DNA of 64,000 bases from Halorubrum sp. GN11_10-6_MGM (GTDB lineage: Archaea; Halobacteriota; Halobacteria; Halobacteriales; Haloferacaceae): assembly GCF_005435165.1 (NCBI RefSeq), contig NZ_SGUC01000008.1, positions 44,662 through 108,661 on the forward strand, given 5' to 3'. A program made the translations under genes and the position numbers. The notes beneath the pieces are model-generated. The model had not been told where the DNA came from and did not search any database. It saw nothing but the letters and a program-made list of their open reading frames with translations. Below are positions 32,529 through 51,079 of the stretch, piece by piece. Each line of letters starts with the position of its first letter. Positions within the stretch are counted from its first letter, which is position 1.

Positions 32529-32637
32529 GCACCCGTTCGAAGATCTGGCTTGTCTGTGGCCCCCAACATTCTATGAGCGTCTGACGCACTCTTAAGACTC
32601 TCCGATATCTTTGCTCTCTTTGAGGACAAAGACACGT

Positions 32638-33417
32638 ATGAGACTCGGAGTTACCAACCAGAAAGGCGGTGCCGGGAAGACGACCACGACACTGAACGTC
32701 GCCGGCGCACTGAACCAGCGTGGCCATGATGTTCTTGTCATCGACCTCGACCCACAGGGACATGCCACTGAGGGGCTCGGCTTCGAAGATCTGTACGACG
32801 ATCCCGACCGTGACTCGCTGTTCGATGTCCTCCCTGATCTCGACCGGATGGGCGACCTCGAGCAGTTGGCCGTCGAGCATCAGGAGGTCGATGTCGTCCC
32901 CAGCCACGAGCGGATGATCAACGCCGAGGACGAGCTCGCGAACGTGATGAAGCGCGAGGAACGCCTCGACATGCTCTTTGACGAGAGCGACGCCGACCAG
33001 CGCTGGGACTACATCCTTGTCGACTGTCCCCCGAACCTCGGTGTGCTCACCGACAACGCGATCGTCGCGACCGGGAACGTCTTGATCCCCGCGCAGGCGA
33101 AGTCGACGAGCATCCGCGCAATCGAGCTCCTGTTCAAGCAGCTCCGGAGTATCGAGTCTGCGTTCGGCGACGTGGATGAGGTTGGACTCGTTGCGAATGA
33201 GGTCGGCGTCGACGGCGAGGCCGAGGAGATGATGGAATGGTTCAAAGACGTCTTTGAGGACAGAGAGAATTGTGAGGTCTTTGAGATCAGAAAACGCGTC
33301 GCACTACAGCGTGCGTGGAACGCCGGCGTCTCCATCTTCGAGCACGATGAGGACAGCGACATGGAAGAGGTGTACCTCGACGTCGCCCGCCACTTGGAGG
33401 ACTACCCCAATGCCTGA
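32638..33417 (+). CDS. parA: ParA/Soj-type partition ATPase
   Basis: From ATG 32638 the protein has 259 residues with the deviant Walker A NQKGGAGKTTTTLNVAGAL at about 7-25, VIDLDPQGHATEGLG and the Walker B-like VDCPPNLGVLTDNAI. ParA uses ATP-dependent DNA binding to segregate plasmid or chromosome copies. I rejected the 9-residue upstream extension. The last bases overlap by 8 bp the next gene, its likely ParB-like partner. Located in the plasmid-like half of the window. Confidence 0.92.
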   Translation: MRLGVTNQKGGAGKTTTTLNVAGALNQRGHDVLVIDLDPQGHATEGLGFEDLYDDPDRDSLFDVLPDLDRMGDLEQLAVEHQEVDVVPSHERMINAEDELANVMKREERLDMLFDESDADQRWDYILVDCPPNLGVLTDNAIVATGNVLIPAQAKSTSIRAIELLFKQLRSIESAFGDVDEVGLVANEVGVDGEAEEMMEWFKDVFEDRENCEVFEIRKRVALQRAWNAGVSIFEHDEDSDMEEVYLDVARHLEDYPNA

Positions 33418-36450: not shown

Positions 36451-37305
36451 TTACGCCGAAGCGAAGTCATCGAGCGTGCTGCTCTGTGTCTCTTCGATCG
36501 TCGGGGGGTGCTGGCTCTCCTCGTCGTCGTGGAGGTACTCCGGTTCGGGGCCGGACCGCGGATTCGTCCCATCGGTGGCGTCGTATACGGCCGCTGTCGG
36601 ATCGGGGAGTTCGGCCGCATCCGTCACGGTGTGGTCCTCCTCGGTGTCGGTGCTGGCGAGCTGGTTGATCCGGTCGGCGAGTTGGTTGCCGGTGGCCTGG
36701 ATGTAGGCGACCGCGACCCGCATATCCTCCCATCCCATCAGTGCTTGGAGGTAGTGAGCTTCCATCCCCTGCTCGGCCCAGTAGAACGCCGCAGCGGCTC
36801 GGAGCGCATGCGGGTAGAGCCGATCTAGGCTGGCGCGTTCCTGGAGCGTGTTCACCCGGCGATTGATCGTCGACTGAGCGACGTCGAGGTGGCCGACCTC
36901 GTCGACGAACGTCTCGACGATCTCGATACTGCGCTCGGAGTAGCCGTAGGGGATCGCGCGGATGCTGGCCTCATATTTCGGCTGCCAGTACACCTCGAGC
37001 GCGTCCTCGGCGTCGACGTCGTCGTGTGTCTCCGCGAGTTCTTGGACGCGCTCGCGACAGTACCGACACGAGCAGTCATCGAGCCCGGGGATTTTGATGA
37101 TCTTCCTGTCGCGGTCGACCCACCCCTCATGGAAATGTATCAATTCACCCGACCGGAGAGTGAGCCGCCCGCTGGCGTGGCAGATGAATCTGTCCTCCAC
37201 CCGGCGGCCGGGAGTGTCGGCGAGCCCGGCCGCTCGGAGTAGTCGCTTGAACTCATCCCGGCTGGGGGCGTCGGCGGAGGCGTGTCTTACAAGTGCCGAA
37301 CTCAT
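36451..37305 (-). CDS. Tyrosine recombinase/integrase (XerC-like, plasmid or virus type)
   Basis: The 284-residue protein has a Cys-rich N-terminal region (CSCRYCRERV), then the catalytic half: IRAIPYGYSERSIEIVETF (first Arg), STINRRVNTLQERA, the H-x-x-R motif in LYPHALRAAAAFYWAEQGM, and the nucleophile Tyr in MGWEDMRVAVAYIQATG. These fit pHK2-like or halovirus integrases. It ends in an acidic Pro/Gln-rich tail. The attachment site is not known; a 47-bp dyad and a short iteron set lie just upstream (37444-37724). Confidence 0.87.
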   Translation of the reverse strand: MSSALVRHASADAPSRDEFKRLLRAAGLADTPGRRVEDRFICHASGRLTLRSGELIHFHEGWVDRDRKIIKIPGLDDCSCRYCRERVQELAETHDDVDAEDALEVYWQPKYEASIRAIPYGYSERSIEIVETFVDEVGHLDVAQSTINRRVNTLQERASLDRLYPHALRAAAAFYWAEQGMEAHYLQALMGWEDMRVAVAYIQATGNQLADRINQLASTDTEEDHTVTDAAELPDPTAAVYDATDGTNPRSGPEPEYLHDDEESQHPPTIEETQSSTLDDFASA

Positions 37306-37677: not shown

Positions 37678-37724
37678 CCTTATGTATACTCAGGTCCGTA
37701 ATTAGGTCGAGATGCTACATAAGG
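37678..37724. repeat. 48-bp dyad, copy A
   Basis: CCTTATGTA (37678-37686) and TACATAAGG (37716-37724) with 29 bp between. In this copy the right arm extends as ATGCTACATAAGG, the reverse complement of CCTTATGTAGCAT in copies B and D. See also copies at 44015, 45273 and 50524. Confidence 0.8.
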
Positions 37725-38049
37725 TGACAGTACCAGAAGTCGGGAGATCCACGTTATACTGATGTGTGGAGCCACTTTGGCGGCGCGACCGACACCCGAT
37801 GTCGACGCAGTCGGGCGTGTTCGATCCGATAGGTAAACCGCCAGCAACGTGTCTGACGCACCGAACTGTCAGGACGCCCGACGGGACGCGGTCAATCTTA
37901 ACTACAATCCGGGCGGTGAAGTGACAATGTTGGTTAATCTGGGTCGCTCTTGTGTAGAGCTGCGGAAAGACGATTTTACATTTTGTACACCTGCCGCCGT
38001 CCAGCGATCTGAGTCCTAGTTGGCGTAGTTAATTCGCTGTGGGTACAAC
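37725..38049. other. Gene-free stretch
   Basis: Between dyad A and the short gene at 38050 I see no promoter, repeat or coding signal I could support, apart from AT-rich patches near 37900-37980. Confidence 0.4.
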
Positions 38050-38277
38050 TCAACGGCCCCTTTCCGTGTTTCTACGTAGAAGCGCCGGATCTCGCTCAAG
38101 CGCAGCCGTTGACACAGTCCCAACTACGTCGGCAATACTTCCAGAGTCATACTCGATCATCATGGCGATCAGTTGCTCAAATACTTCCTCAGAAACGGTG
38201 AGACTGGTGTATCTGTCCGACGGCGTTACCAAATTGCGGCAAGTACGGATCAGCCTACGGTACGATGTTGACCTCAA
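38050..38277 (-). CDS. Short protein with RHH-like core, possibly degraded
   Basis: The 75-residue frame contains YTSLTVSEEVFEQLIAMMIE and YDSGSIADVVGTVSTAALER, a strand-helix-helix pattern like ribbon-helix-helix antitoxins or plasmid copy-control proteins. The N-terminal 20 residues are basic and unlike such proteins, so the start may be lost. Low confidence. Confidence 0.35.
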   Translation of the reverse strand: MRSTSYRRLIRTCRNLVTPSDRYTSLTVSEEVFEQLIAMMIEYDSGSIADVVGTVSTAALERDPALLRRNTERGR

Positions 38278-38526
38278 CTAGGGTTAAATCTCGGAAGTAC
38301 GATTAGCCAATACAACGTGCTCCGTCGAAAAGTGGCGGTCAGTCTCTTACGTCCCATGTCCTAGTTCACACGCTCATAATATAGCGGCTTTCTATCGGAT
38401 CAACACAGCAAATTATCGGTGTTTCTAGGTCTTCTATCCCGTTTCTAACAATGTGTTATATGACATTACGAGACCACAATATCTAACATCTAATTAGTCA
38501 TTAGTTCACGACATGGTGGTACTCAG

Positions 38527-39162
38527 ATGGATTTGAACAAGACTGACCAGCTGATTTTAGCAAAGCTCAGAGAGGGGCGATGTACCCCCCGATATTTAGC
38601 CGATGAACTCAACCGAAACCAGTCATACGTGAGTCAACGACTACGACATCTTCAGAATGAAGGACACGTTGATCGTGTACATCGAGGGTTGTACCGCAGT
38701 GCTGCCGTTGACTCATCTCATGTTTCAGCTGAAGATCTGGTTGAATCGTATGAGCCAGCGGAATTAGTGTCCTCAGTTACCAACTGTAGTCAGCACGATG
38801 CTACTACTAATGAAGTGTTCCCAAAGCCGTCATCACTCTCGATCGAATTCGGTACCGATGATGTCTCGACCGTAGTTTCACGTGTCTGTCAATCTGGAAC
38901 GAGCGAAGAGCAACAAGTCTTGGAGTCCATCTTTCGCGATATCTTATGGACACTCATTCAGGATGGCCAGATAACGAGCAAGGAACTGCGCGCAAAAGTA
39001 AACCGTCTAACTGATATTGATGTCGTCGACCTTCGTGATATTCATCAATATATGACTAAAATAAAGAACCGACTTACAACCCACCCCCAGATTACTTTGA
39101 AACGTAACTCACCGTCGCAGAAGATAATCTATACTCGCGAATCACCTGTCCTCCGTATATAA
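38527..39162 (+). CDS. MarR-like winged-helix transcriptional regulator
   Basis: The 211-residue protein starts MDLNKTDQLILAKLREGRCT and continues PRYLADELNRNQSYVSQRLR, HLQNEGHVDRVHRGLYRSAA: the typical haloarchaeal winged helix found near plasmid genes. The rest is a helical domain without recognised ligand site. An AT-rich palindromic patch CTAATTAGTCATTAGTTC lies near 38493, just upstream, possibly its own operator. AT-rich codons suggest acquired DNA. Confidence 0.8.
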   Translation: MDLNKTDQLILAKLREGRCTPRYLADELNRNQSYVSQRLRHLQNEGHVDRVHRGLYRSAAVDSSHVSAEDLVESYEPAELVSSVTNCSQHDATTNEVFPKPSSLSIEFGTDDVSTVVSRVCQSGTSEEQQVLESIFRDILWTLIQDGQITSKELRAKVNRLTDIDVVDLRDIHQYMTKIKNRLTTHPQITLKRNSPSQKIIYTRESPVLRI

Positions 39163-39568
39163 TGGCAGACCACGTTCAGAATGAAACTGACCGTGGTGAA
39201 AGAGACACTCAGCCCGATTAATGTAGACACCGTCAGGCCGAAGTTCCAGACAAACAACACGCCCGCCCCACACTAACCCACTCCTAAATACACTAGCACC
39301 CCCGGCCATCTCCCACACGACTCCTCACCCACGCCTGTCTCACTCTCGACGCAAAACTATTGGACGACTCTCTTCAGGCTCACTATCCACTGGCCGTTGA
39401 GGTACAAGAAGCGTGTCCCATACTCGCTCATCACCATCGAATCCCTCAAACTCGGAATCACACTTCCGAGAGTGATATCATCGAGTCACTGTTTCAACCC
39501 AGCGAGATGCGATCAGTTTCTGCTACCGATTTTCCCGCTTCAGTGATTCCTAACGCGGAAATGGAAAA
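39163..39568. other. Gene-free stretch before the tandem repeats
   Basis: No gene supported. There is one isolated 'CTCGACGCAAAACT' at 39347 that resembles the repeat unit that follows and the 37.4-kb iterons, so it may be a diverged copy. Confidence 0.4.
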
Positions 39569-39715
39569 CGACCCCCCGACTGTCGACGCAAAAATGACTC
39601 ACGAATAGAGCGCGACCCCCCGACTGTCGAAACAAAAATGGCTCACGAATGGACCGCGACCCCCCGACCCTCAATACAAGGCTAACACACGAGTAGAACG
39701 CAACCCCTCGGCGAA
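39569..39715 (+). repeat. 44-bp tandem repeat, 3.3 copies
   Basis: CGACCCCCCGACTGTCGA occurs at 39569 and 39613, CGACCCCCCGACC at 39657, and a decayed CAACCCCTCGG at 39701, exactly 44 bp apart. The unit also contains AAAAATG(A/G)CTCACGAAT. Non-coding on both strands. It abuts the left end of the ISH3-like element. Confidence 0.85.
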
Positions 39716-39770
39716 GTATTCTCAGCAAGCCACACCAATACTGACTCTCTAGCTCTCAGCTATCGAAGAC

Positions 39771-41170
39771 CAACTTCAGTACTTCACAAAGCCGCTTAGT
39801 TAGAACGCCTGCTTGCTGAAGGTGTGTCTACGACCCAGCAAGCAGACAGTGAACTCCACGAAGACCAACTCCTTAACTTCCTCGTCAACCAGCTTGACGA
39901 GGAAGTTACTCTGAACCTCGCCAACAACGCTGAAATCGATACAGAGGACATCCACGAGGTCCTCGTCGGCGCAACCGCCGACGGGACCTCGATCTCGACG
40001 CTCTGTGCGTCGAGTCAGAACGCCCCCGCTGCCAACACGATCCTCTACCATCTCCGGACGAAGTTCGAGCCGGAACGGCTCGAACGAGTCGCTAACACGC
40101 TCCTTCGACGAGATATCGTCGAACTGCTTCCCGAGCAGGTGGAGGTCTGTGTAGACCTCCACCTGCGGCCCTACTACGGTGATGAAGACGACACGGAGAA
40201 CCTCTATCACTCGGAAGCCAAGCGTGGAACCACCGCGTTCCACGCCTACGCCACACTCTACGCGCGTGTGAAGAACAAACGCTACACGCTGGCGGTGCGC
40301 CGTCTCGAAGACGGCGACACCGCCAGCAGCGTCCTCGCTGAGTTCTTCGGTGTCCTTGACGGCCTTGACACCGATATCAAGGCCGTCTATCTTGATCGCG
40401 GATTCTACGACAGCAAGTGCCTCACGCTGCTTCAAGCACATAACTACGCGTACGTAATCCCGATCATCCGGTGGGGGAAGACGATTCAGCAAGAGCTCTC
40501 GGAAGGGTGGAGTCGTGTCATTCAGCATGATCTGACAGGGAAACTCGACGGTCACAGCTGGACCGTCGAGTTTCCCGTCTACATCGATTGTACGTACCTG
40601 AACGGGAAGTATGACGACCACGGTGTGGCGCGTCACGGCTACGCCGCTGACGCGCCGTTCATCGAGAGACCACGCGACGCTCGATACCACTACGCGAAAC
40701 GGTTCGGTATCGAGTCGAGCTATCGGTTGTCCGAGCAAGCGATAGCGACGACAACGACACGAGATGCGATGGTGAGACTGCTGTTCGTTGTGGTGAGTTT
40801 GTTGTTACAGAACGCGTGGCGGTATCTTCACTACGAATATGTGGCGACGCCCCGCCGTGGCGGGCGTCGCCTCTGGTGGTGGCCGTACAAGGAATTCGTC
40901 AATATGGTTCGACGGGCTGCGTGGACGGCCCTCGCGGTACGTCGGGCCGTCCCCGCGAATCGACCACCAGACGACCGGTTCCACCGGTAGTCACTGACCG
41001 AGTACGCCGTCTCGTGAGTGGCAACGCTGTCGCGTCGGCGGCTGAGCGCCGCCGACAGCGACAGCTGCGGCTTCGAACAGCATCGATCAATCGCTACTGA
41101 TGATTCATTTCGACAGAACAAGTGACTCAAGTCAGGTTAGCTGACGATGCTTTGTGAGGTACTGAACTTG
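39771..41170 (+). mobile_element. ISH3-family insertion sequence, 1400 bp, apparently complete
   Basis: The ends CAACTTCAGTACTTCACAAAGC (39771-39792; core given as TTCAGTACTTCACAAAGC) and its near reverse complement at 41149-41170 match at 20 of 22 positions. It contains one intact transposase gene. Size fits ISH3-type elements. Flanking bases (AAGAC and TGCCA) do not match, so no target duplication is visible; recombination between copies is possible. Confidence 0.85.
39824..40990 (+). CDS. ISH3-family transposase
   Basis: The 388-residue protein matches the ISH3 family throughout: LHEDQLLNFLVNQLDEEVTL at the start, VCVDLHLRPYYGDEDDTENL (first Asp), AKRGTTAFHAYATLYARVKN, DTDIKAVYLDRGFYDSKCLT (second Asp), AKRFGIESSYRLSEQ (Glu) and the basic C-terminus PRRGGRRLWWWPYKEF. 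It starts with GTG at 39824. All DDE residues are present, so it could be active. Confidence 0.95.
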   Translation: MSTTQQADSELHEDQLLNFLVNQLDEEVTLNLANNAEIDTEDIHEVLVGATADGTSISTLCASSQNAPAANTILYHLRTKFEPERLERVANTLLRRDIVELLPEQVEVCVDLHLRPYYGDEDDTENLYHSEAKRGTTAFHAYATLYARVKNKRYTLAVRRLEDGDTASSVLAEFFGVLDGLDTDIKAVYLDRGFYDSKCLTLLQAHNYAYVIPIIRWGKTIQQELSEGWSRVIQHDLTGKLDGHSWTVEFPVYIDCTYLNGKYDDHGVARHGYAADAPFIERPRDARYHYAKRFGIESSYRLSEQAIATTTTRDAMVRLLFVVVSLLLQNAWRYLHYEYVATPRRGGRRLWWWPYKEFVNMVRRAAWTALAVRRAVPANRPPDDRFHR

Positions 41171-41300
41171 TGCCAGCGTCCTCACACCCCACATCTCCCA
41201 AGTCAGCCTCACTCCTTTCGCGATAGCTACCGGCTCGATCACCTCACTACTCAGTGCTTCCTACCACATTTAGTATGGTTTTCACAGCCCAACCGGCCCT

Positions 41301-41770
41301 GTAAATACCAGACAGCACCGGGATTGCGGTAGTCCATATATAGTCTCGTAAATACCAGACGGCACCGGTATTCGGCGGGTGCGTATTAATTAGCAAGTCC
41401 CAATCGCACGACCACCTGGCATTTGCCTATTTACCAGACGGCGGCATGATATGGTCTTCTCGTATATAGTCTCGTAAATACCAGACGGCACCGGTATTGC
41501 GGGGGTGTGTATTAACTCTCAGAACACGAGGTGCGACACGCGAACCACCAGCATAAATACCAGACGGTGGCGTGATACGGCCGTCTCGTATATATTCTCG
41601 TAAATACCAGACGGCACGGGGATTGCGGCATTCTGTATATAGCCGGTGAACTTGATTCAGATTCTCCAGTAATACCAGACGGCGTGGCGATTGACACCTC
41701 CTATATTAATTTATGTATTCTATCTATCTTTTCCTGTAAATACCAGACGGCGGCGGGATTACGGGGGTTC
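41301..41770 (+). repeat. Eight-copy TACCAGAC iteron array
   Basis: TACCAGAC starts at 41306, 41353, 41432, 41479, 41558, 41605, 41673 and 41741. Intervals are 47, 79, 47, 79, 47, 68 and 68 bp. The full unit is (TA)AATACCAGACGGCACCGG followed by an ATTGCGG-like motif. Spacers alternate between a type ending in GTATATAGTCTCG and a longer type, so the basic period is 126 bp. Non-coding; AT-rich GTATATAG elements recur. Origin, centromere or promoter array is open. 41171-41300 and 41771-42060 hold nothing else recognised. Confidence 0.85.
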
Positions 41771-42060
41771 GTATATAGAATTACACCGGCGACAGCGTCT
41801 ACATACGTTCAGCCATACGACGAGAGAGCTTTAGGGACTCTATTAATGAACTTGGAGCTGTGTAATACGTTCAGCCGAATTCACACAATTAGGGTTCAGG
41901 GCAGATGAAGTTCAGTAGATAGTCGCGTAGCGAACGATTCGGGCCGGAGCCAAGAAACAGGCGGGGGAAAGTGGGGGAGACGGGAGGCGGACGAGGAGGG
42001 GACTATCAAGGATATGATAGTGGATGGAACCCTGAGTGAGCGGCGCAGCGGACAGGGGAT

Positions 42061-42540
42061 GCGAGGCGATGAACAGGGACCAACGACAGGCGAGTAACGA
42101 CCAACAACCAGAGGCGACGGACACCACCAACATCGACGGCGACGAGAGACAACCGACCACTCGGAGCGACGACCGAACCCGACGAGGCTGACCGACGATC
42201 GATACACCGAGAACGCGGACCCGACGGTCGACGACGGACCACCAGCTGATCGATAGCACCCCAGAGGCAATTGACGACACCAACACCGAGACTGGCCCGG
42301 CGGCACCAATCCGACGAGCGACGACGAGAACCGACTCGGAGAGGACACGGATCAACGACGACCGGTGGCGACCAGCCCGACGACCGGGAAGCGACACGGC
42401 GACCTTGACCACCGACCAGCATCGAGGATGGACCAGGAGGCGAACGGCGACGAGGGAGACCACCGAGACGACACGACACCCGACGACGAACAGCGGCGGC
42501 GGGGCAACGACAGAAGGTGGGGGCCAGATCACAATGCGAG
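42061..42540 (+). other. T-depleted, CGA-rich tract
   Basis: Counting line by line, the plus strand has only 25 T in 480 bases (about 5 percent) while A, C and G are balanced and GAC/CGA triplets dominate. No plausible gene: frames on the plus strand are broken or unlike proteins, and the long minus-strand frame is antisense to the MCP remnant. A transcript from the plus strand would be almost without U. Confidence 0.8.
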
Positions 42541-42719
42541 AGTGCGGGGTGGGGCGCGGTCGACGACATCGAGAATCGCGGTCGCGATGTGAGCGGTGTG
42601 GTGTGGGTGGGCGGGGAGACGCGACCGTGACCGTACCAGATGTGACGCGACGGTGGGGCGGAGGCGACAACAGCGAGACAGCGATACTACGGGAGCGGCG
42701 AACCGACGGGGACGGCGAA

Positions 42720-43300
42720 GGAAATGACGACATCGCGGACCTCAAAGACGAGTTCGAAGAAGTCGAAGAGCTCGTCGGTGTGATCAACGACATCGCCGAG
42801 CAGACGAACATGCTCGCGTTGAACGCCAACGTCGAGGCGGCGCGGAGCAACAGCGACGGCTTCGCGGTCGTCGCCGACGAGGTGAAGAACCTCGCGAATC
42901 GCTCGCAAGACCAAGCTGACGAGATCGAAGACATTGTCGCGAGGATCAAGGAGAAGGCTTCCAAAACCACCGCCGAAGTGGACGCAGCCAACGACGTGAT
43001 ACAGTCTGCGAGAGACGACATCAAGCCGTCCTCGAGAACCAAAAACAAATTCTCACGGCAGTTGAGCAAACTGAGAGTGGGATCACCGAGATCGCGGAGG
43101 CAACAGACGAACAGGCAAGCGTGACCGAAGAGATATCGAGTGCCGTCGACGACGTCTCCGAACGGGCGACCATCGTGAGCGAGGAAATCGCAGAGATCGC
43201 GGCCGAAAACGAGAGCCAGACAGAGATGGTCTCGGATCTCACCCGGCAGGTTGAACAGATTGACCGTAAACTGGCGAGTGTGATGAATCGGTCAGTTTGA
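42720..43300 (+). pseudogene. Methyl-accepting chemotaxis protein fragment with frameshift
   Basis: The first frame gives VEELVGVINDIAEQTNMLAL, NANVEAARSNSDGFAVVADE and VKNLANRSQDQADEIEDIV, the conserved MCP signalling tip. After DAANDVIQSARDDIK near 43025 the frame breaks; one base later it continues AVLENQKQILTAVEQTESGI, TEIAEATDEQASVTEEISSA to the stop at 43298. One base is missing at the junction. The sensor, membrane and HAMP parts are gone, so the gene cannot function as a receptor. Confidence 0.85.
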
Positions 43301-43664
43301 GCGGTCCGCGCCCCACAGACAGAACAACACACCCACACCACGTTTCCGCCGTTATCTCCGGAATATCGATAGTTCAGGCCATCTCCTGTAGCCGTCTTTT
43401 TTGACATCTCCCTCTGTCTTCAGGCGGAAGAACCCTGACCACAGTTGGGATCTATAACATCGCGTACGATGGCTACTCATGACCTATAGTCACGCTGCTG
43501 TCCCCGGAACAGTACTTTCGCCCCGCTCGCCCGAACTATAAGTCACAGAGTCTCTAATTTTGAAGAGAGGGGGCACCACTGAGCCGGTTCCAACAACCGG
43601 ATCAGCTCCAGAACGGTGTCACACGCTCCCCCTCCCCCTCGAAGTAGCCCGTGAACTCGTGAGA
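43301..43664. other. Gene-free stretch after the MCP remnant
   Basis: No supported gene or repeat. Contains a 'ATCTCCTGTAGCCG' patch and an AT-rich region near 43490-43560 that may be the promoter of the zinc-finger pair. Confidence 0.35.
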
Positions 43665-43832
43665 ATGACTCCTGATGACCCAGAGACTGTCCGTGGCGAC
43701 TGCTCGTTCTGTGGCGAGACAGTCACGAGTCGGCACGCAATCATCCACTATGAGACCGCTGGCGGCGACACAGGCGTGTGGGCCGAATGCCCCAGCTGTG
43801 GCGAGATCGTTGACCCCACCGATGCTAAGTAA
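43665..43832 (+). CDS. Small zinc-finger protein (DUF7837-like)
   Basis: From ATG 43665 the product is 55 residues: ETVRGDCSFCGETVTSRHAI, then IHYETAGGDTGVWAECPSCG and EIVDPTDAK. Two CxxC pairs (CSFC, CPSC) would bind one zinc. Such small haloarchaeal zinc proteins are common near plasmid genes; function unknown. Its end overlaps the next zinc-ribbon gene by 11 bp. An upstream start at 43560 is possible. Confidence 0.65.
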   Translation: MTPDDPETVRGDCSFCGETVTSRHAIIHYETAGGDTGVWAECPSCGEIVDPTDAK

Positions 43833-43977
43833 ACAGTTCATCCGGCAGATCGCCAGGCTCGAGCTGCCATCGACAACGCACCACGAGTGCCGTCACTGTG
43901 GGTACAGCGTGGAGAAGGACGTTGATGAGTGTCCACAGTGTGGCTCTAAAGAAATTGCGGCCTACGATCTCAAGTAA
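43822..43977 (+). CDS. Small zinc-ribbon protein
   Basis: The 51-residue product MLSKQFIRQIARLELPSTTH then HECRHCGYSVEKDVDECPQC GSKEIAAYDLK carries CRHC and CPQC, a minimal zinc ribbon. It overlaps the preceding small zinc gene, so the two form a unit. A degraded copy of its tail lies at about 45180-45234, part of a segmental duplication. Confidence 0.65.
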   Translation: MLSKQFIRQIARLELPSTTHHECRHCGYSVEKDVDECPQCGSKEIAAYDLK

Positions 43978-44014
43978 TTGCTGAAGTGGTCACAGTTGGT
44001 GGAGAAGTTTAATG

Positions 44015-44062
44015 CCTTATGTAGCATCCGAACGCTAACATGGCATCAATTATTACATAAGG
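44015..44062. repeat. 48-bp dyad, copy B
   Basis: CCTTATGTA (44015-44023) and TACATAAGG (44054-44062), 30 bp apart. The ATG of a decayed DUF6788-like gene begins 2 bp later, so the dyad covers its promoter. Confidence 0.8.
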
Positions 44063-44063
44063 T

Positions 44064-44409
44064 ATGGAGGAGCCGCCACCACCGACCTCGCTACCCAAGT
44101 ATCTCGCAAAAGGCTCCCAAAGCAGGATACGGAGACGCTCCACGAGATACAGAGCTACGTTGGGGTACTCATCGAGTATCGCGACCAGCCACTCGGCACC
44201 GATGAACTTCCCGAGACAGCTGAATCCGTCAACAAGCCCGACAGTTCAGGAACTGGACCATCGTCAAAGAGAAGATCACCTGTGGCGACGACAGCTGTAA
44301 GTGCGCCAGCGGAGATCGTCAGGATATGCACGGCCCGTATCTCTACCGCTACTATCGTGAGAATGGGACGATGAAATCAGAGTACATCGGGAAGCCGGGA
44401 AGTGGGTAG
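44064..44409 (+). pseudogene. DUF6788-like gene, frameshifted copy
   Basis: It begins MEEPPPPTSLPKYLAKG like the intact copy at 45322, then loses a base (CTCGCAAAAGGCTCC versus CTCGCAGAGGGGCTCC), and again near 44247 (GGAACTGGACC versus GGAAGCGGGACC). Past that the frame gives KITCGDDSCKCASGD and YLYRYYRENGTMKSEYIGK and stops at 44407. Two single-base deletions make it a pseudogene. Confidence 0.85.
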
Positions 44410-44492
44410 TGGTGAGTCGGTCAACGTCGACTAACGAGCATCCCGGGAGAGATACGCTTTTCACTGTACGCACACTTAGACAACGGTATACG

Positions 44493-44594
44493 ATGAACTG
44501 GGATAGTGAGCGAGAAATGGCCAAAGACGTCGAGGAGAACGAGGAACTGTACGAGGCGCTCGCAGACGACGATACCGACGACGACAAAGAGTAA
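44493..44594 (+). CDS. Tiny acidic protein convergent with the Doc-like gene
   Basis: Starting at ATG 44493, the 33-residue product is MNWDSEREMAKDVEENEELY EALADDDTDDDKE, highly acidic and helical-looking. Its stop abuts the stop of the Fic/Doc-like gene. It could be a small antitoxin-like or unrelated peptide; there is no proof it is made. Confidence 0.35.
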   Translation: MNWDSEREMAKDVEENEELYEALADDDTDDDKE

Positions 44595-45095
44595 TCAGCG
44601 ATACTCTTCAGGAAGGACCTCGCCGAAGAACTGAAGCCAGACGCGATACAGCTCGTCCGTTTCATACAATCTGTCGAGATGGATCGGAGGTATCTCTCTT
44701 CGAACGTCGTGTGACTCAGCTCGCACCCGTTTGACCCGCTCCGTCGACCATTCTCCCGGTTCGATCCCGTTGTCACGGAGCAGCTTTCGCAATGTAACGA
44801 TCGCAGTACGGTGGTTCCCATCCGGGAAGAAGTGTTTCCCTACGAGCGCGTGTATCCAGAGCGCGCACTGTTCGGGAAGCGGCCGGTCAGTTGGGAACTC
44901 CTCGAGAACCCGTTCGAGATCGCCGTTTCTCACTCGCCAGATCTCCTTTCGCTGTTCAAGGAACGACTCGTCGTGTGGATTGTCGTAGTGATGGCCGTCT
45001 GCTCTCAGAAATTGTGTATTCCGGAATTTGAAGTTCTCCGGCTCGATCGACGAAAGATCCGTGATACGAGGGGCTGGATCCGTCGAGTCTCCCAT
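44595..45095 (-). CDS. Doc/Fic-family protein
   Basis: The 166-residue protein has a Fic core with the loop HFFPDGNHRTA (His88-Arg96), the Doc-like HxFxDGNxR active-site motif that transfers a phosphate (Doc) or AMP (Fic) to target proteins. N-terminal ENFKFRNTQFLRADGHHYDN and helices around match. An inhibitory Phd-like partner is not visible upstream; the neighbours are tiny acidic and zinc genes. So it may be a stand-alone Fic enzyme or an orphan toxin. Confidence 0.85.
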   Translation of the reverse strand: MGDSTDPAPRITDLSSIEPENFKFRNTQFLRADGHHYDNPHDESFLEQRKEIWRVRNGDLERVLEEFPTDRPLPEQCALWIHALVGKHFFPDGNHRTAIVTLRKLLRDNGIEPGEWSTERVKRVRAESHDVRREIPPIHLDRLYETDELYRVWLQFFGEVLPEEYR

Positions 45096-45109
45096 TCGTT
45101 ACACGCCCC

Positions 45110-45234
45110 AACTCATTCGATCTACATTACTTGTGGGGGAGACATGCGTATACGGTTCCTCATCAGACCCGGTCGATACTGATGAATGCCCACAGGGTAG
45201 CTCTCACGAGATTGCGACCTACGATCTCGAGTAA
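45110..45234 (+). pseudogene. Decayed copy of the small zinc-ribbon gene
   Basis: The last codons encode VDTDECPQGSSHEIATYDLE, matching VEKDVDECPQCGSKEIAAYDLK of 43822-43977, with one cysteine lost (CPQC to CPQG). The upstream half is not recognisable. It is the left end of the second copy of a duplicated block. Confidence 0.7.
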
Positions 45235-45272
45235 TTGCTGAAGAGCTCACAGTTGGTAAAGCGAGTTCAACT

Positions 45273-45320
45273 CCTTATGTGTCACCCGAGCGCTAAAGTG
45301 GGACTAGTTGTTACATAAGG
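45273..45320. repeat. 48-bp dyad, copy C
   Basis: CCTTATGTG (45273-45281) and TACATAAGG (45312-45320), 30 bp apart, one base differing from copy B's left arm. The ATG of the intact DUF6788-like gene follows at 45322. Confidence 0.8.
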
Positions 45321-45321
45321 T

Positions 45322-45669
45322 ATGGAGGAGCCGTCACCACCCACCTCGCTCCCGAAGTATCTCGCAGAGGGGCTCCCAAAACAGGATACGGAGACACTCC
45401 ACGAGATACGGAACTACGTCGAGGCGCTCATCGAGTATCGCGACCAATCGGTTGACACCGAGGAGCTTCCCGAGACTGCGGAGCCCGTCGACGAGTCCGA
45501 TGGCGCAGGAAGCGGGACCGTCGTCAAAGAGAAGGTCACCTGTGGCGACGATAGCTGTAAGTGCGCCAGCGGAGACCCCGCGGATATGCACGGCCCGTAT
45601 CTCTATCGCTACTATCGTGAAAACGGGACGATGAAATCGGAGTACATCGGGAAGCCAGGAAGCGAGTAG
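45322..45669 (+). CDS. DUF6788-like small Cys-containing protein
   Basis: The 115-residue protein starts MEEPSPPTSLPKYLAEGLPK, has a helical middle (ETLHEIRNYVEALIEYRDQ) and ends in VKEKVTCGDDSCKCASG and GPYLYRYYRENGTMKSEYIG. The pattern C-x4-C-x-C then 'HGPYLYRYYR' is a small, possibly metal-binding module common in haloarchaeal plasmids and viruses; role unknown. The 48-bp dyad lies immediately upstream. An ancestral copy at 44064 is broken. Confidence 0.75.
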   Translation: MEEPSPPTSLPKYLAEGLPKQDTETLHEIRNYVEALIEYRDQSVDTEELPETAEPVDESDGAGSGTVVKEKVTCGDDSCKCASGDPADMHGPYLYRYYRENGTMKSEYIGKPGSE

Positions 45670-45733
45670 GGTGGATCAGGATAGTCGGGGTTCCAACGAT
45701 CCCAGTCAAATAGACAGTGCCAGTAAAACGACG

Positions 45734-46165
45734 TTACAGCGCTCGTGAGTCGGGTTCGACGATGCTGGCAAACGCGACGTTTGCTTGGACTTGCTCGATC
45801 TCGACCGACAGCTCATGACCTGGTTGTCCGCCGGGAACGATCACGACGTAGCCGCGTTCAACCTTCGCAATGCCGTCACCTTGATCACCAGTCGTCTCGA
45901 TCGTCACATCGCGGACCTCACCCTCATTTACTGGAGGAACGTCCGATGTTGGAGTTTCCTCTTGTACAATTGATTGGGGTTGGTCTTTCTGGGTCTTCTG
46001 TTCTTTCGAAGATTCCGATGTAAGGACGGCAATACGGTACGTTTCGTCGACAGCGAGCGTGTCATGTTCGACTTCATTCGACGGAATGTCCACGACATAT
46101 GACCCATCACGTTCTTCGATTTGAGCACTGAACAGAGAACGAAACGAATCAGGAATTTCAGTCAT
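45734..46165 (-). CDS. TRAM-domain RNA-binding protein
   Basis: The 143-residue protein ends in a TRAM domain (about 80-140): VNEGEVRDVTIETTGDQGDG, IAKVERGYVVIVPGGQPGHE, then VEIEQVQANVAFASIV. The N-terminal half (SYVVDIPSNEVEHDTLAVDE) is a family-specific strand region. Archaeal TRAM proteins act as RNA chaperones or tRNA binders. It lies between the duplication block and the origin. Confidence 0.9.
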   Translation of the reverse strand: MTEIPDSFRSLFSAQIEERDGSYVVDIPSNEVEHDTLAVDETYRIAVLTSESSKEQKTQKDQPQSIVQEETPTSDVPPVNEGEVRDVTIETTGDQGDGIAKVERGYVVIVPGGQPGHELSVEIEQVQANVAFASIVEPDSRAL

Positions 46166-46284
46166 CGGATGTCAATAGTGTAGGAAGCACAGAGTATCTA
46201 AATGTCCCGTATCAGAATCTTGGAGAGACGGGTACTATTGTGAATGAAGCGATCGTATCTCAGAGGGTCGGACCAGTGTCTACA

Positions 46285-46735
46285 CACCATAGCGTCCGCT
46301 GTTCTCAGAGAGCGGCTAGACAGAACAGCGGACACGGTGGTGTGGCACCCACTAAGTGGTCGATAGCGTGAGGGAGAGAACGGCGGACACGGTGGTGTCC
46401 ACCAGTAGTGTACGGCCTAGATCATCAGTGGAAGTACCTAATCTGGAGAAAGAGAACAATAGAGTGGATAGTTAGTATTGTTGAACCCTCCCCCCACAGT
46501 GTCCGCAGTTCTATGCGAATCAAGTGGGAGACTTATTTGTGCTACCTACTAATCATATAGTCTATTCTTGATACTACGGACCAGTAGTAATACTATAGTA
46601 ATAAATCTATCTATATTTCAGAGCCAGTATAGAGTGCTTTGATTAAAATTTCTATTAACAGCGGACATAGTGGGGGGAGGGTGTGACAGCATGATATAAA
46701 TAAGAAGAGAACGGCGGACACTACGGACGGGGTGG
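46285..46735. other. Replication origin with repeated Orc boxes
   Basis: Boxes with the consensus GAAC(A/G)GCGGACAC.GTGG lie at 46285-46306 (minus), 46321-46345, 46376-46400, 46486-46512 (minus), 46657-46681 and 46708-46735 (plus). The inner pair 46486-46512 and 46657-46681 extend into CCCTCCCCCC/GGGGGGAGGG and face each other across a 144-bp AT-rich stretch with many TATAGT-like words, a likely unwinding element. This is the standard haloarchaeal oriC design, next to orc1/cdc6. Confidence 0.88.
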
Positions 46736-46773
46736 TTTTATAATGGAAGCGATTTATTGATAGACGTACGACG

Positions 46774-48018
46774 ATGGGAATGTTCGAGCGGGACACGGAT
46801 ATTTATCGTGACCGGGACGCCCTTCGTGAGGACTACCAACCCGAGCAGCTGGTCGGTCGAGACGAGGAACTCAACACATATCAGACGACCCTACAGCCAG
46901 TTATTAACGGTGAGCAACCGAACAACGTCTTTCTCTACGGTAAGACAGGTGTCGGGAAGACAGCCGCAACGAGATATCTTCTTGATCATCTTCAGTCCGA
47001 TGCGGCCGCGTACGACGATATTGATCTCTCGGTGGTTATGCTCAATTGCGACGGCCTGACATCGAGCTATCAGATCGCGACCCGCTTAGTTAACGAGTTT
47101 CGGGACGACACCGATCAGATCAGCACGACCGGGTATCCACGAGCTGCCGTCTACGATATGCTCTGGAACGAGTTAGACACTAATGGGGGGACAATTCTGA
47201 TCGTCCTTGACGAGGTCGATCACATCGAGGATGACTCCATCCTCTATCAGTTGCCGCGAGCTCGAGCGAATGGTAATCTTGAGACAGCCAAGACTGGGAT
47301 TATTGGTATCTCGAACGACTTTTCATTTCGTGAGGACCTCTCCCCGAAGGTACGATCTTCACTGTGTGAGGAGGAGATCCACTTTCCTGCTTATGACGCC
47401 ACAGAACTACAGCAGATTCTCCAGCAACGAGCCGATGTCGCGTTTCACAAGGGCGTTCTTGAGGAAGGCGTCATCCGCCTCTGCGCTGCCTATGGGGCAA
47501 AGGATGCCGGCGACGCTAGGCAATCACTCGACCTACTGATGAAAGCAGGAGATATCGCTCGCGATGACTCTGCTGAACACGTAATCGATGAACACGTTCG
47601 TCAGGGCCGGACATCACTCGAACGGGGGCGAATTCGTGAAGGAATTGGGGGCCTCACCCAGCATGGGCACCTCGTGTTGTATGCCGTGTTGACGCTCGAT
47701 CAGCAGGGGAAGACTCCGGTTCGCTCGCGGGATGTTCGACCCCGATATACGAGTATGGCCGAGCGGGCAGGGATCAACCCGCTCGTTACACGCCGGATGC
47801 GTGATCATCTTAGCGAACTCATTATGCTCGGGATTCTTGATGTCACCGAGCGCAATGAGGGTCGCCGCGGTGGAACCTACCGCGAGTATTCTGTGTCAAT
47901 GGACCCAGAGCTAATCATCTCTGCGATGGCTGATACTGTCGAACTCGTTGGAATCCACGAGTCGATAGAGAAGTTGCTTGAGCGGGAATCTACGTCAACC
48001 CTCCAAGACTATCAGTAG
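46774..48018 (+). CDS. orc1: Orc1/Cdc6-type replication initiator
   Basis: The 414-residue protein has the AAA+ core: LYGKTGVGKTAATRYLLDHL (Walker A), ILIVLDEVDHIEDD (Walker B), GIIGISNDFSFREDLSPKVR (sensor 1) and the winged-helix C-terminus (VRSRDVRPRYTSMAERAGIN PLVTRRMRDHL). It binds the origin boxes upstream and loads MCM. A plus-strand AT-rich promoter with TATAATGG precedes it. Its position next to the box array makes this replicon self-sufficient. Confidence 0.95.
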   Translation: MGMFERDTDIYRDRDALREDYQPEQLVGRDEELNTYQTTLQPVINGEQPNNVFLYGKTGVGKTAATRYLLDHLQSDAAAYDDIDLSVVMLNCDGLTSSYQIATRLVNEFRDDTDQISTTGYPRAAVYDMLWNELDTNGGTILIVLDEVDHIEDDSILYQLPRARANGNLETAKTGIIGISNDFSFREDLSPKVRSSLCEEEIHFPAYDATELQQILQQRADVAFHKGVLEEGVIRLCAAYGAKDAGDARQSLDLLMKAGDIARDDSAEHVIDEHVRQGRTSLERGRIREGIGGLTQHGHLVLYAVLTLDQQGKTPVRSRDVRPRYTSMAERAGINPLVTRRMRDHLSELIMLGILDVTERNEGRRGGTYREYSVSMDPELIISAMADTVELVGIHESIEKLLERESTSTLQDYQ

Positions 48019-48039
48019 TTCTTTTCGTGTGTTGGTTTC

Positions 48040-48122
48040 TCCGGACATCGTGGTGTCCGTTCCGCTCGGAGGCACACTCTCGTATGGATCGGTCGGACGA
48101 TAACAGCGGACAGTCCGGTGTG
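48040..48122. repeat. Downstream Orc-box-like elements
   Basis: CCGGACATCGTGGTGTCCG (about 48041-48059) and AACAGCGGACAGTCCGGTGTG (48102-48122) echo the origin box consensus. They lie just behind the orc1 stop. They may be extra initiator sites or autoregulatory. Confidence 0.6.
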
Positions 48123-48408
48123 ACGGTAGTTGCGTTCGATTGAAATATGAAGATATGACGCCTTGTTGAACGCAAGACAGCGTCGGGGTAAGATCAAATC
48201 TACACAGTATTATAGCGTTAGAGGCGCTCTTATTAAGAACCGTGAAAAGCGGCCATCTGCGTATACTGGTTTTATACTGAGGAACCAATTAACTGGTCAA
48301 TATAAACCGCCAATGGCGTGAAAAACAGCTGATAGAGTTACTCACTTTCATGTGTCCTGTGTGATCCTATGCAGTCAGAGTTCGATACTCCCGATTCAAT
48401 AGCGTATA

Positions 48409-48903
48409 CTATGGAAATTCGCGGCCACAGTCTGGACAGAAGGTTTCGCCGCCATCCAGCAGAGAGAGGCACTTAACGCAGAGACGATTGCTTGGACGGG
48501 TGGCGATATCCTCCAGAAAGTCCATCGCAGTCTGTGACGCAACCCCTGGCCGATAGCCGTTAGCGTACCCCGGCAGTGTTGAGGCCCATTGGACCGTTCC
48601 CTCATCATCGACTACCGCAACGTTCCCAGCGATATCGAGTTTCCCGTAGCGTTTGAACGCCTCTGACGGTGTCTGGTCGATAGTTTGGTTCAGGGCACGG
48701 TTACGTTTGAGGTCGCGCTCATAGACATCCTCAGGCCTTGAGGACCGTATTTCGCCTGGGAAGTTCGCGATCGTCCCGTGCTGCTCGTCGATCCGGTCGA
48801 TCTCGACAGCGATGCCGTGCGTATCATACAGCGTTCGAAAGAGTCGTAGCGTATGGTCGTGCCATTCTCGGATCTCCGCATCAGCGTAGTAGCGGAGAAT
48901 CAT
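48409..48903 (-). CDS. Hypothetical protein with C-terminal zinc ribbon
   Basis: The 164-residue protein starts MILRYYADAEIREWHDHTLR and has LYDTHGIAVEIDRIDEQHGT, a central 'NVAVVDDEGTVQWASTLPGY' segment, and a C-terminal zinc ribbon CVKCLSLLDGGETFCPDC. I do not recognise the family. Its ATG overlaps the stop of the upstream gene (ATGA), so the two are one operon; the region behind orc1 otherwise has no gene. A nuclease-associated role is possible but not supported. Confidence 0.65.
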   Translation of the reverse strand: MILRYYADAEIREWHDHTLRLFRTLYDTHGIAVEIDRIDEQHGTIANFPGEIRSSRPEDVYERDLKRNRALNQTIDQTPSEAFKRYGKLDIAGNVAVVDDEGTVQWASTLPGYANGYRPGVASQTAMDFLEDIATRPSNRLCVKCLSLLDGGETFCPDCGREFP

Positions 48904-49259
48904 GTGTCCTGCTCAGTGTTTTCTGCGGCTGCGATGCGGTCCGAGAGGCTTTGGGCGAGCCACTCGTTGGCGAGTTCGCTCGCACAATCGACCATCTGTT
49001 GATGGCTCATCCCCTCGGTTTCGAATGATTTGTAAACGTGCCATTGTTCCGCGCCTGGATCAAAGACAATCACATGTGTCTTCGCTTCCATATCCAGCAG
49101 GAACGCTTCGATCGTACTAGGAGACGATCCCGGAAAGCCCATAGCTCCGCGAACTTTTGGATTGTCGGTTTCGCCAATCTGCTTCACGATATCGTCGGTA
49201 ATGGGCTGGCTCGGAAGCGACGAGAGAAACGAAGGTGTGGTTTCTAAATCATCGGTCAT
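48900..49259 (-). CDS. Hypothetical protein, first gene of the pair
   Basis: The 119-residue protein includes PITDDIVKQIGETDNPKVRG, AMGFPGSSPSTIEAFLLDME and HVYKSFETEGMSHQQMVDCA. No known domain is seen. It is coupled by a 4-base overlap to the zinc-ribbon gene. Typical plasmid-like hypothetical with acidic composition. Confidence 0.65.
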   Translation of the reverse strand: MTDDLETTPSFLSSLPSQPITDDIVKQIGETDNPKVRGAMGFPGSSPSTIEAFLLDMEAKTHVIVFDPGAEQWHVYKSFETEGMSHQQMVDCASELANEWLAQSLSDRIAAAENTEQDT

Positions 49260-49433
49260 GCGTGGCGATTCGTGGTGAAATATCTTGAATCCGTGGACCT
49301 AGTCGTATCTTCCTGTTATATTTCACCTCCGTCACCGTAACGAAAAAGTGACTACCACCACCCGATGACGAATCTATCGATAATCTCTGTGAACAACCTT
49401 AGACATTTACTATCGCGCTCTCTCACTACGAAT

Positions 49434-50426
49434 ATGTCGTTTCGGGTCAGCTGGCACAATCTCCTTGAGCGGTTAGATGACCTCCCGGAAGGAGCGACGC
49501 TTCGGACACCACTCTCGAACGACCGGTTTCAGATAACTGGCGTCCAGGAACACCGCGTCATCATCAGATTCTCAGATAGCGGTGAGTCGCGACCGATTCA
49601 AAAAGACCAGTTTGAGACACTATATCGACGTGTCTCCGACTCTACCGATGGGTTCGACCTCGATCGACTCCCACCCGATGCGGATCCATACCCGACGGTA
49701 TTGAGTCTTCATCCACGATTCGAGGTGAACGACGACCGAGGTGTGATAATCGAGACCGAAGCGCCAACCACCTCATTGTTGCTAGACGAGGACCCGTCCT
49801 CTGAGCCTGCTCCCGACGAACGGACAGAACCTGATCTCGATGTCTACGCGGATGCGCTGTTGCTCGTCGACGCGCTGGAACGTCACGAGGTTACAGCGCT
49901 CGAAGGTGTCGAGACAGGGACACTCATCGACCTGTATACCTTGCTCTCGGACGTTCAACGGAACGCCAACGACCTCCGCAAGGAGATCGCGGATACGCTC
50001 TTAGACCGACTCCATCACGACCGACCGGTCTCGGGATCGTACGGCTCGGTCCAGCGGACGGCTCGGACGAACCGCTCGCTCAAAGACGACGAGGAGGTGC
50101 TGGACACGCTCGAATCAGCCGGGATCAACCGTGATCGGGTGGTGAGCGTTGATCGCGGGAAGGTTGACGACGCCCTCGAGGTGACTGATGTTGCCGAAAG
50201 CGACGTCTACGAGATTGACGAAACCGAGTACGTTCGGAAAGCCGAGGTGGACGAAGATCGCAAGGAGACGCGACTCCAAGGGCTGAAAGACCAACTTGCG
50301 GCGAGCGATGCTGACGATGCCGACCAGCTTCGCGACGAAGTCGAAGAGCTGGAATCGCGGATCGAGGAACTGACCGAATTCAAGTCTGGACAGTCGTATC
50401 ACACGCGCTCGAATGCCGACCGGTGA
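49434..50426 (+). CDS. Acidic coiled-coil protein of plasmid/virus type
   Basis: From ATG 49434 the protein has 330 residues: an N-terminal domain (MSFRVSWHNLLERLDDLPEG, TPLSNDRFQITGVQEHRVII), a long acidic middle, and a C-terminal coiled coil (VDEDRKETRLQGLKDQLAAS, DQLRDEVEELESRIEELTEF). The segment YADALLLVDALERHEVTALE also looks helical. I cannot name a family; similar genes sit beside plasmid origins in haloarchaea. The longer start at 49365 adds an unlikely hydrophobic lead. Confidence 0.65.
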   Translation: MSFRVSWHNLLERLDDLPEGATLRTPLSNDRFQITGVQEHRVIIRFSDSGESRPIQKDQFETLYRRVSDSTDGFDLDRLPPDADPYPTVLSLHPRFEVNDDRGVIIETEAPTTSLLLDEDPSSEPAPDERTEPDLDVYADALLLVDALERHEVTALEGVETGTLIDLYTLLSDVQRNANDLRKEIADTLLDRLHHDRPVSGSYGSVQRTARTNRSLKDDEEVLDTLESAGINRDRVVSVDRGKVDDALEVTDVAESDVYEIDETEYVRKAEVDEDRKETRLQGLKDQLAASDADDADQLRDEVEELESRIEELTEFKSGQSYHTRSNADR

Positions 50427-50523
50427 GTCGGTTTGATGACGTGACGAAAAGAACGAACAGGCCACGGCCGAGGGCAATTACGACGCAAGGACTCCAGAAC
50501 CGTTGATCGTCGTTGGGCTATGA

Positions 50524-50571
50524 CCTTATGTAGCATTCCATCACGTTTTCCCACCAGTTTGATACATAAGG
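50524..50571. repeat. 48-bp dyad, copy D
   Basis: CCTTATGTA (50524-50532) and TACATAAGG (50563-50571), same 48-bp length as copies B and C. No DUF6788-like gene follows here. It lies in the 300-bp gap before the winged-helix gene at 50726. Confidence 0.8.
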
Positions 50572-50725: not shown

Positions 50726-51079
50726 ATGAGTGCGTCACAGGGTGAAGTCGATCTCTCGGAGGACGAACGTGCGGGTCTTGAACTGGTCCGTGAGACAGGT
50801 GGGATTCACCAGAGCGACTTTTGGAAAGAGCTAGATGTCTCTTCGCGAAAAGGAAGCCGACTAGTCGAAGCGCTTGAGAGTGCCGAGCTGATCCAGCGTG
50901 AGGAAACGGTGTACGAAGGTCAGCGGACCTACTATCTCGAACCAACAGCATCTGATCGTGACTTTTCACTGCTGATGGCGGGTGACATGCTCTCGCCATT
51001 CATTGGTGAAGAAGAGGTCGATCCGCAGGCAGACGCCTTCTCCCAATGGCTGATGAACATCACGTACGAGGAAGAGTGA
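50726..51079 (+). CDS. Winged-helix transcriptional regulator
   Basis: The 117-residue protein has VDLSEDERAGLELVRETGGI, HQSDFWKELDVSSRKGSRLV (recognition helix) and EALESAELIQREETVYEGQR, a single winged helix, then an acidic tail (GEEEVDPQADAFSQWLMNIT). Such one-domain regulators are common in haloarchaea. The TATA-like AACGATTATAATGAAT lies at about 50690-50705. No clear partner gene. Confidence 0.85.
   Translation: MSASQGEVDLSEDERAGLELVRETGGIHQSDFWKELDVSSRKGSRLVEALESAELIQREETVYEGQRTYYLEPTASDRDFSLLMAGDMLSPFIGEEEVDPQADAFSQWLMNITYEEE

What the first reader, a model, noticed from the sequence alone, without database searches (positions are those of the whole stretch)
37678..50571. Four dispersed copies of a 48-bp dyad (CCTTATGTA...TACATAAGG)
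Copies at 37678-37724 (47 bp), 44015-44062, 45273-45320 and 50524-50571 (48 bp each) have 9-bp inverted arms separated by about 30 bp with different interiors. Two sit directly before DUF6788-like start codons, one after the integrase, one before a winged-helix gene. The strict length over varying interiors means the arms are bound as a fixed geometry by one factor. It may be an operator, a recombination site or a segregation site specific to this replicon.
Basis: seen in the sequence. Interest (0 to 1): 0.85.

Follow-up and report, generated by a model that had tools for sequence, protein, structure and literature searches.

The report
Plasmid protein and its dispersed tags
Several dispersed copies of a 48-base mirrored DNA motif on this Halorubrum contig are the likely landing sites of an unstudied small protein, DUF6788; the same gene-plus-motif pair recurs on plasmids and viruses of archaea and on a few bacterial plasmids, with motif letters that change together with the protein, and it is predicted to help such replicons control themselves and be kept by the cell.

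Summary
The four copies exist (one has a mismatch), and a fifth lies upstream on the same contig. Allowing 3 mismatches at N29 and N30, no other copy was found in the 3.32-Mb genome. The motif is not peculiar to this replicon: 59 of 63 DUF6788 (PF20586) genes examined have such a dyad just upstream, usually ending within 8 bp of the start codon. Arm sequence changes with protein clade (CTTATGTAAC, CTTGTGCAAC, CTTACCAAAC, CTTATCAAAC) while geometry stays similar. Further dyads in a locus are of the resident type. The pairing recurs on plasmids of Methanothermobacter, a cyanobacterium, a bacteroidete and Rhodothermus. Arms mostly deviate singly, so each is probably read as duplex DNA. Dyads lie mostly outside genes, some in convergent gaps, and near Orc1/Cdc6 in 31 of 36 loci that have it. 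Best reading: DUF6788 binds the dyads, represses itself and marks the replicon for maintenance. Binding is well supported by inference; maintenance only moderately. In phages phiH and PhiCh1 the segment between two dyads is inverted, so recombination is a live rival. Nothing found in print.

The parts
37678..37724 (.). dyad, type 1 arms, N29; between integrase and HTH gene
44015..44062 (.). dyad, N30; operator position in front of a broken DUF6788 gene
44064..44409 (+). broken DUF6788 gene (two frames match)
45273..45320 (.). dyad, N30, one mismatch in left arm; operator of the intact DUF6788 gene
45322..45669 (+). DUF6788 gene, 115 aa, proposed dyad-binding protein
   Evidence: PF20586 37.2 bits, cut-off 27.2
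50524..50571 (.). dyad, N30; about 98 bp after ORF 49365-50426 and 155 bp before the winged-helix gene
46774..48018 (+). Orc1/Cdc6 replication initiator; dyads 1.4 kb before and 2.5 kb after its stop-to-stop frame
32596..33417 (+). ParA homologue (stop-to-stop frame), E 1.7e-145 to the PhiCh1 ParA query
36451..37305 (-). tyrosine integrase, about 370 bp from dyad 37678
50726..51079 (+). winged-helix gene (DUF7343/MarR-like, below cut-off)

Best explanation
The dyads are the predicted binding sites of DUF6788, a small protein encoded directly behind two of the window's copies, which likely represses its own promoter and would use further dyads spread over the replicon for replication control or segregation. 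Shown: dyad next to gene, arm type tied to protein clade, resident-type dyads elsewhere in the locus, intergenic placement where tested, Orc1/Cdc6 neighbourhood. Inferred: a dimer whose C-terminal beta sheet reads one 9-12-bp arm per subunit; left arm upstream of a TATA-like box and right arm near the transcription start, so that occupancy shuts the promoter; bound dyads paired or bridged, which would tag the replicon in the manner of ParB or KorB. Untested: binding, dimerisation, repression and stability.
For: (1) 59 of 63 DUF6788 ORFs have a CTT-beginning dyad with arms matching in 8 or more of 11 positions just upstream (loci not all independent, and CTT was required). By a measure that presumes no motif, 53 of 64 reach at least 10 of 12, against 14 of 1280 shuffles. 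(2) Protein distance and arm distance correlate, Mantel r=0.725, largest of 2000 permutations 0.170 (clades are not independent, so this is not a phylogenetic test). Among 28 proteins under 80% identity the two top columns share 1.488 of 1.901 bits with the arm centre; both lie in the C-terminal strands, and the S/W/R column fits S with TGT, R with TGC, W with CCA, TCA or CCT. (3) Of 62 DUF6788 loci scanned, 3 have no dyad of the five types and the rest hold one type only, apart from T1 with its one-base variant T5 in L185 and L222; reversed-arm control 3 hits in 1,176,161 bp. (4) Arms mostly deviate singly (172 one-arm, 27 both-arm deviations in 225 dyads), which fits duplex half-sites better than a paired stem. 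(5) In phiH the record's transcription start of T8 lies in the right arm. (6) Same arrangement on plasmids of Leptolyngbya (5 exact dyads, one with N14), Methanothermobacter (5), Tunicatimonas (1, before the operon holding DUF6788) and Rhodothermus (4). (7) All 20 type 1 dyads found (up to 4 mismatches) in five annotated stretches of four plasmids are outside listed genes, where 49-77% is coding (gene tables incomplete). (8) Orc1/Cdc6 in 35 of 61 DUF6788 loci; with the window, a dyad lies within 2.6 kb on both sides of it in 15 of 36 loci and on one side in 16 (loci were chosen around DUF6788, and no background rate was computed).
Against: No binding data. Both-arm deviations exceed the independent expectation (27 against 14.5), perhaps through subtype mixing. 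Same-type genes coexist in one genome (G224: five fetched, all T1 or without operator; G228: five of its six fetched, all T2), which is odd for a segregation tag with incompatibility. A ParA match is present in only 22 of 61 loci. In several records ParA overlaps a small gene that could be its own partner. 19 of 21 virus records with dyads lack a DUF6788 match, though many are fragments. Of 30 dyad-bearing genomes checked, five have no DUF6788 match and six only weak ones. L170, L182 and L187 have no operator, and phiH has it one gene upstream. Type mixing at genome level: G252 (T1 gene) has T3 dyads on other contigs, and contig C24 of G224 holds a T1-type locus and a T3 dyad. One dyad lies inside an Orc1/Cdc6 open frame (L225). 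PL100, with many dyads, was unstable in culture. Structure searches gave no clear relative. The two divergent DUF6788 proteins in L300 and L301 break the residue-arm rule, and L298 has no dyad at its start.
Confidence: 0.6

Rival explanations
1. Plain regulon: DUF6788 is a plasmid transcription factor and every dyad is an operator of a neighbouring gene; nothing to do with replication or segregation.
For: The DUF6788 operator sits over its promoter region; the second dyad of phiH and PhiCh1 lies upstream of ParA; one PL100 dyad is 10 bp from a gene start.
Against: By hand, 4 of 14 dyads that are not DUF6788 operators lie between convergent genes; so do single dyads on pLBX, Halalkalicoccus and Haloplanus plasmids and two on the Rhodothermus plasmid, where there is no promoter to control. 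Many others are hundreds of bp from a listed start.
Confidence: 0.25
2. Recombination site: dyads are crossover points for inversion or module exchange by a nearby tyrosine recombinase, with DUF6788 as accessory protein.
For: The DUF6788-ParA segment between the two dyads is inverted between phiH and PhiCh1 while outer flanks stay collinear (inversion 2 in PMC6210493, passage seen), with Int2 next to one dyad. 27 of 1203 homology endpoints fall within 6 bp of a dyad edge, 5.6 expected. One flank family (window 50572 onward) occurs at 12 sites with several different partners across the dyad. Weak fold likeness of residues 51-115 to integrase arm-binding domains.
Against: Integrase matches in only 18 of 65 scanned loci. 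Most of the 27 endpoints lie at DUF6788 operators, as expected if gene and operator travel together, and gene boundaries were not controlled for. A 24-31 bp centre of unrelated sequence is unlike known tyrosine recombinase cores (recalled). Ordinary recombination between the repeats would also invert the segment.
Confidence: 0.13
3. Mobile repeats (MITE-like) or a chance motif.
For: Copies are dispersed; palindromic small repeats are known in Haloquadratum (PMC3119063, passages seen).
Against: Interiors differ while arms and placement are kept; arms covary with a neighbouring protein. The 18 bacterial loci look like chance background: none has a DUF6788 match in the held DNA.
Confidence: 0.02

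Closest known systems
KorB / O_B of IncP plasmids and ParB / parS (recalled)
   Same: plasmid-encoded protein, autoregulated, with several palindromic sites dispersed over the replicon
   Different: DUF6788 matches only PF20586 and no ParB or KorB family; half-sites are asymmetric, 9-12 bp, and mostly 24-31 bp apart; ParA matches in only 22 of 61 loci
matS/MatP and Noc/NBS chromosome site systems (recalled)
   Same: short dispersed sites read by one protein that organises a replicon
   Different: here on plasmids and viruses, with an autoregulatory copy and a protein not known to be related
phiH / PhiCh1 L-region (MK002701, MK450543)
   Same: DUF6788 gene, dyads and ParA in the replication/lysogeny region
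   Different: arms are CCTTATCAAAC; the dyads are not annotated in the fetched stretches, nor mentioned in the five passages of PMC6210493 that I saw

Membership tests
PF20586 (DUF6788) | profile score over curated cut-off | tested here: met
   37.2 bits against 27.2 for window 45322-45669
autorepressor with operator | conserved site over the promoter region of its own gene | tested here: met
   59 of 63 ORFs; TATA-like boxes seen by eye in interiors; phiH start site in the right arm
autorepressor with operator | binding and repression measured | not testable with these tools
   -
ParABS partition | ParB-type centromere-binding protein family | tested here: not met
   only PF20586 found at E 0.01 in Pfam
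ParABS partition | linked ParA ATPase | tested here: inconclusive
   22 of 61 loci, three ParA queries
ParABS partition | site stabilises the plasmid | not testable with these tools
   -
tyrosine recombinase crossover site | 11-13 bp arms around a 6-8 bp core (recalled) | tested here: not met
   9-bp arms with mostly 24-31 bp between them
tyrosine recombinase crossover site | rearrangement endpoints at the site | tested here: inconclusive
   one phage inversion bounded by dyads; 27 of 1203 endpoints, 5.6 expected
MITE / small mobile repeat | copies alike along their whole length | tested here: not met
   interiors differ
arm-binding / AP2-like DNA-binding fold | fold match | tested here: inconclusive

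The most novel reading that the evidence does not exclude
DUF6788 and its dyads are a cross-domain replicon identity system: a new class of centromere-like machinery, with a C-terminal beta-sheet reader whose arm code has diversified by clade and whose dispersed sites are bridged to pair, segregate or copy-control plasmids and extrachromosomal proviruses.
Probability: 0.35. Interest if true: 0.9.

Novelty: new variant of a known kind. Interest (0 to 1): 0.8.

Why it matters
It gives a likely function and a DNA target to a domain of unknown function found on archaeal and bacterial plasmids and on the classic haloviruses phiH and PhiCh1. It supplies a ready candidate recognition code (arm letters against a few residues), and it makes the poorly known question of how haloarchaeal extrachromosomal replicons are kept directly testable.

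Tried and rejected
RNA or DNA stem-loop: thought unlikely because most deviations in one arm are not matched in the other, although both-arm changes are above the independent expectation. Chance: rejected. Mobile cassette bounded by dyads: homology often starts at the operator's outer edge, but this fits gene-plus-operator inheritance, so it is left open. ParA as obligatory partner: not supported. Sequence search of solved structures: only two designed TIM barrels over 31 residues, taken as chance. Fold searches listed no convincing relative. Literature: DUF6788 and PF20586 are in no paper of the held library. For arm strings, one search listed 5 of 2,062 papers, none with the string, and one search listed 15 of 31 papers, none by title on archaea or plasmid sites. 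Searches gave listings only. I saw passages of PMC6471424, PMC6210493 and PMC3119063 and section 10 of the last, and no whole paper. Viral scans: 14 new contigs with perfect CTTATGTAAC dyads have no DUF6788 match in the held DNA nor in their records.
Full report
OBSERVATION. The dyad CCTTATGTA-N29/30-TACATAAGG is present at 37678, 44015 and 50524 exactly and at 45273 with one mismatch. A fifth copy is at C190:23814. Allowing three mismatches at N30 and N29, these five are the only ones found in the 3,321,212-base genome. In 170 genomes of the family the exact pattern with N26-33 occurs in 31, reversed controls in none; shorter spacers N0-25 occur in none. Spacers above 33 were not scanned genome-wide; in the fetched loci only a few lie there.

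WHAT THE DYADS MARK. Across fetched loci the right arm often ends 1-7 bp before a gene whose product begins with a motif like PPxSLPKYL, which is PF20586/DUF6788. PF20586 was then sought in 392 genomes of the order: 58 match. I fetched 57 stretches around such genes and 3 of the window's own contig. With those, the two phages, PL100 and the window, an iterated profile gave 65 hits; two are frames of the broken window copy. Of the other 63, 59 have an inverted repeat with CTT-beginning arms just upstream (some loci are near-identical, such as L200 and L216). The four without: phiH, whose operator precedes the upstream gene of the same direction, L170, L182 and L187. In 49 operators measured, the AAG end of the right core lies 2-8 bp before the start codon.

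ARM CODE. Arms differ by clade: CCTTATGTAAC (T1; Halorubrum, Haloquadratum, Halococcus, Halocatena), CCTTGTGCAAC (T2; Halalkalicoccus), TCTTACCAAAC (T3; Haloplanus, Halobacterium, Haloarcula and others), CCTTATCAAAC (T4; phiH, PhiCh1), CCTTGTGTAAC (T5). Protein and arm distances correlate (r=0.725, permutations at most 0.170). Among 28 proteins under 80% identity the most informative columns are S/W/R and Y/V/A, both in the predicted C-terminal strands (AlphaFold2 mean pLDDT 82.9, pTM 0.64). W goes with CCA, TCA or CCT arms, S with TGT, R with TGC. The distant plasmid proteins of Methanothermobacter, Tunicatimonas, Leptolyngbya boryana and Rhodothermus have S or N and TGT arms, while L300 and L301 break the rule. 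Scanned loci contain dyads of the resident type only, apart from the T1/T5 one-base mix in L185 and L222; L170, L175 and L176 have none of the five types (L175 and L176 have variant arms). This is the main argument that DUF6788 itself reads the arms. Clades are not independent, so the statistics overstate certainty.

GENOME-LEVEL LINK. By hand (assuming the two order draws are the same 392): of 94 genomes of the family in the draw, 20 have an exact T1 dyad; 17 of these have PF20586, two more (G117, G006) have a DUF6788 match with profile A1, and one (G142) has none. The other five PF20586-positive genomes of the family (G065, G066, G067, G068, G071) have T3-type operators. The exact T3 pattern is in 33 of 392 genomes: 17 of them have PF20586; of the other 16, seven match A1 below E 1e-8, six weakly and three not at all. 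In all, of 30 dyad-bearing genomes given to A1, 19 match below E 1e-8, six weakly, five not. Of 30 T3 loci of 3 kb or less, 8 hold a DUF6788 match, so most T3 dyads there are remote from the gene.

BEYOND HALOARCHAEA. The Leptolyngbya boryana plasmid pLBX has a perfect dyad before its DUF6788 gene and 5 exact CTTGTGTAA dyads in 505 kb, one of them with N14. Rhodothermus marinus pRHOM17201 has 4, though its DUF6788 gene shows only one clear arm. Methanothermobacter pRMAS01 has 5 CTTATGTAA dyads in 22 kb, including one 48 bp before the operon and one 20 bp after DUF6788. Tunicatimonas has one just before the operon. Leptolyngbya NIES-3755 plasmid3 has no CTTGTGTAA dyad.

MECHANISM. Duplex reading: 172 one-arm against 27 both-arm deviations in 225 dyads, with 14.5 both-arm expected if independent. 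Interiors at DUF6788 contain TATA-like boxes (judged by eye); in phiH the annotated T8 start lies inside the right arm. So autoregulation is likely. Of the 20 type 1 dyads checked against gene tables all are intergenic, 4 of the 14 that are not DUF6788 operators in convergent gaps (classed by hand). Dyads lie within 2.6 kb of Orc1/Cdc6 on both sides in 15 of 36 loci, on one side in 16, and inside the open frame in 1; often one of them is the DUF6788 operator itself, the loci were chosen around DUF6788, and no background was computed. In the window they bracket Orc1/Cdc6 46774-48018. I therefore favour a maintenance role by pairing or bridging, which is inference.

AGAINST AND RIVALS. No ParA match in 39 of 61 loci. 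Same-type copies coexist in one genome. Many virus fragments have the dyad without the gene. The phiH/PhiCh1 inversion has its ends at the dyads to within about 35-80 bp and agrees with inversion 2 of PMC6210493 (31,932-34,126; passage), so a recombination role is possible.

NOVELTY. No paper in the held library names DUF6788 or PF20586. The general logic (plasmid regulator with dispersed sites) is known; the family, the geometry and the arm code appear new.

Noticed in passing
L183, L184, L185, L192-L194, L212, L242, L334; Methanothermobacter L296; pLBX L311: DUF6788 genes are flanked by a dyad on both sides, the second shortly after the stop codon; unexplained.
   Followed up: partly
L060 5255-5303, L081 130-178: Dyads with a third arm CCTTATGTA inside the interior, in direct orientation to the left arm.
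   Followed up: no
L315-L328 (IMG/VR contigs): 14 virus contigs with perfect CTTATGTAAC dyads, four with N18, and no DUF6788 match in the held DNA or the records.
   Followed up: partly
window 50572 onward and flank cluster 2: The flank leading to the winged-helix gene is joined across the dyad to several different partner flanks in other loci.
   Followed up: partly
window 44595-45095: Fic/DOC-like gene (just below cut-off) between the two DUF6788 copies.
   Followed up: no
L134 3988-6182 (phiH) against L135: DUF6788-to-ParA block inverted between phiH and PhiCh1, bounded by the dyads.
   Followed up: yes
L300, L301: Divergent DUF6788 proteins without the Cys cluster have TAACCAACA-type dyads near their starts; for L300 the match does not exceed the best of 100 shuffles.
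   Followed up: no
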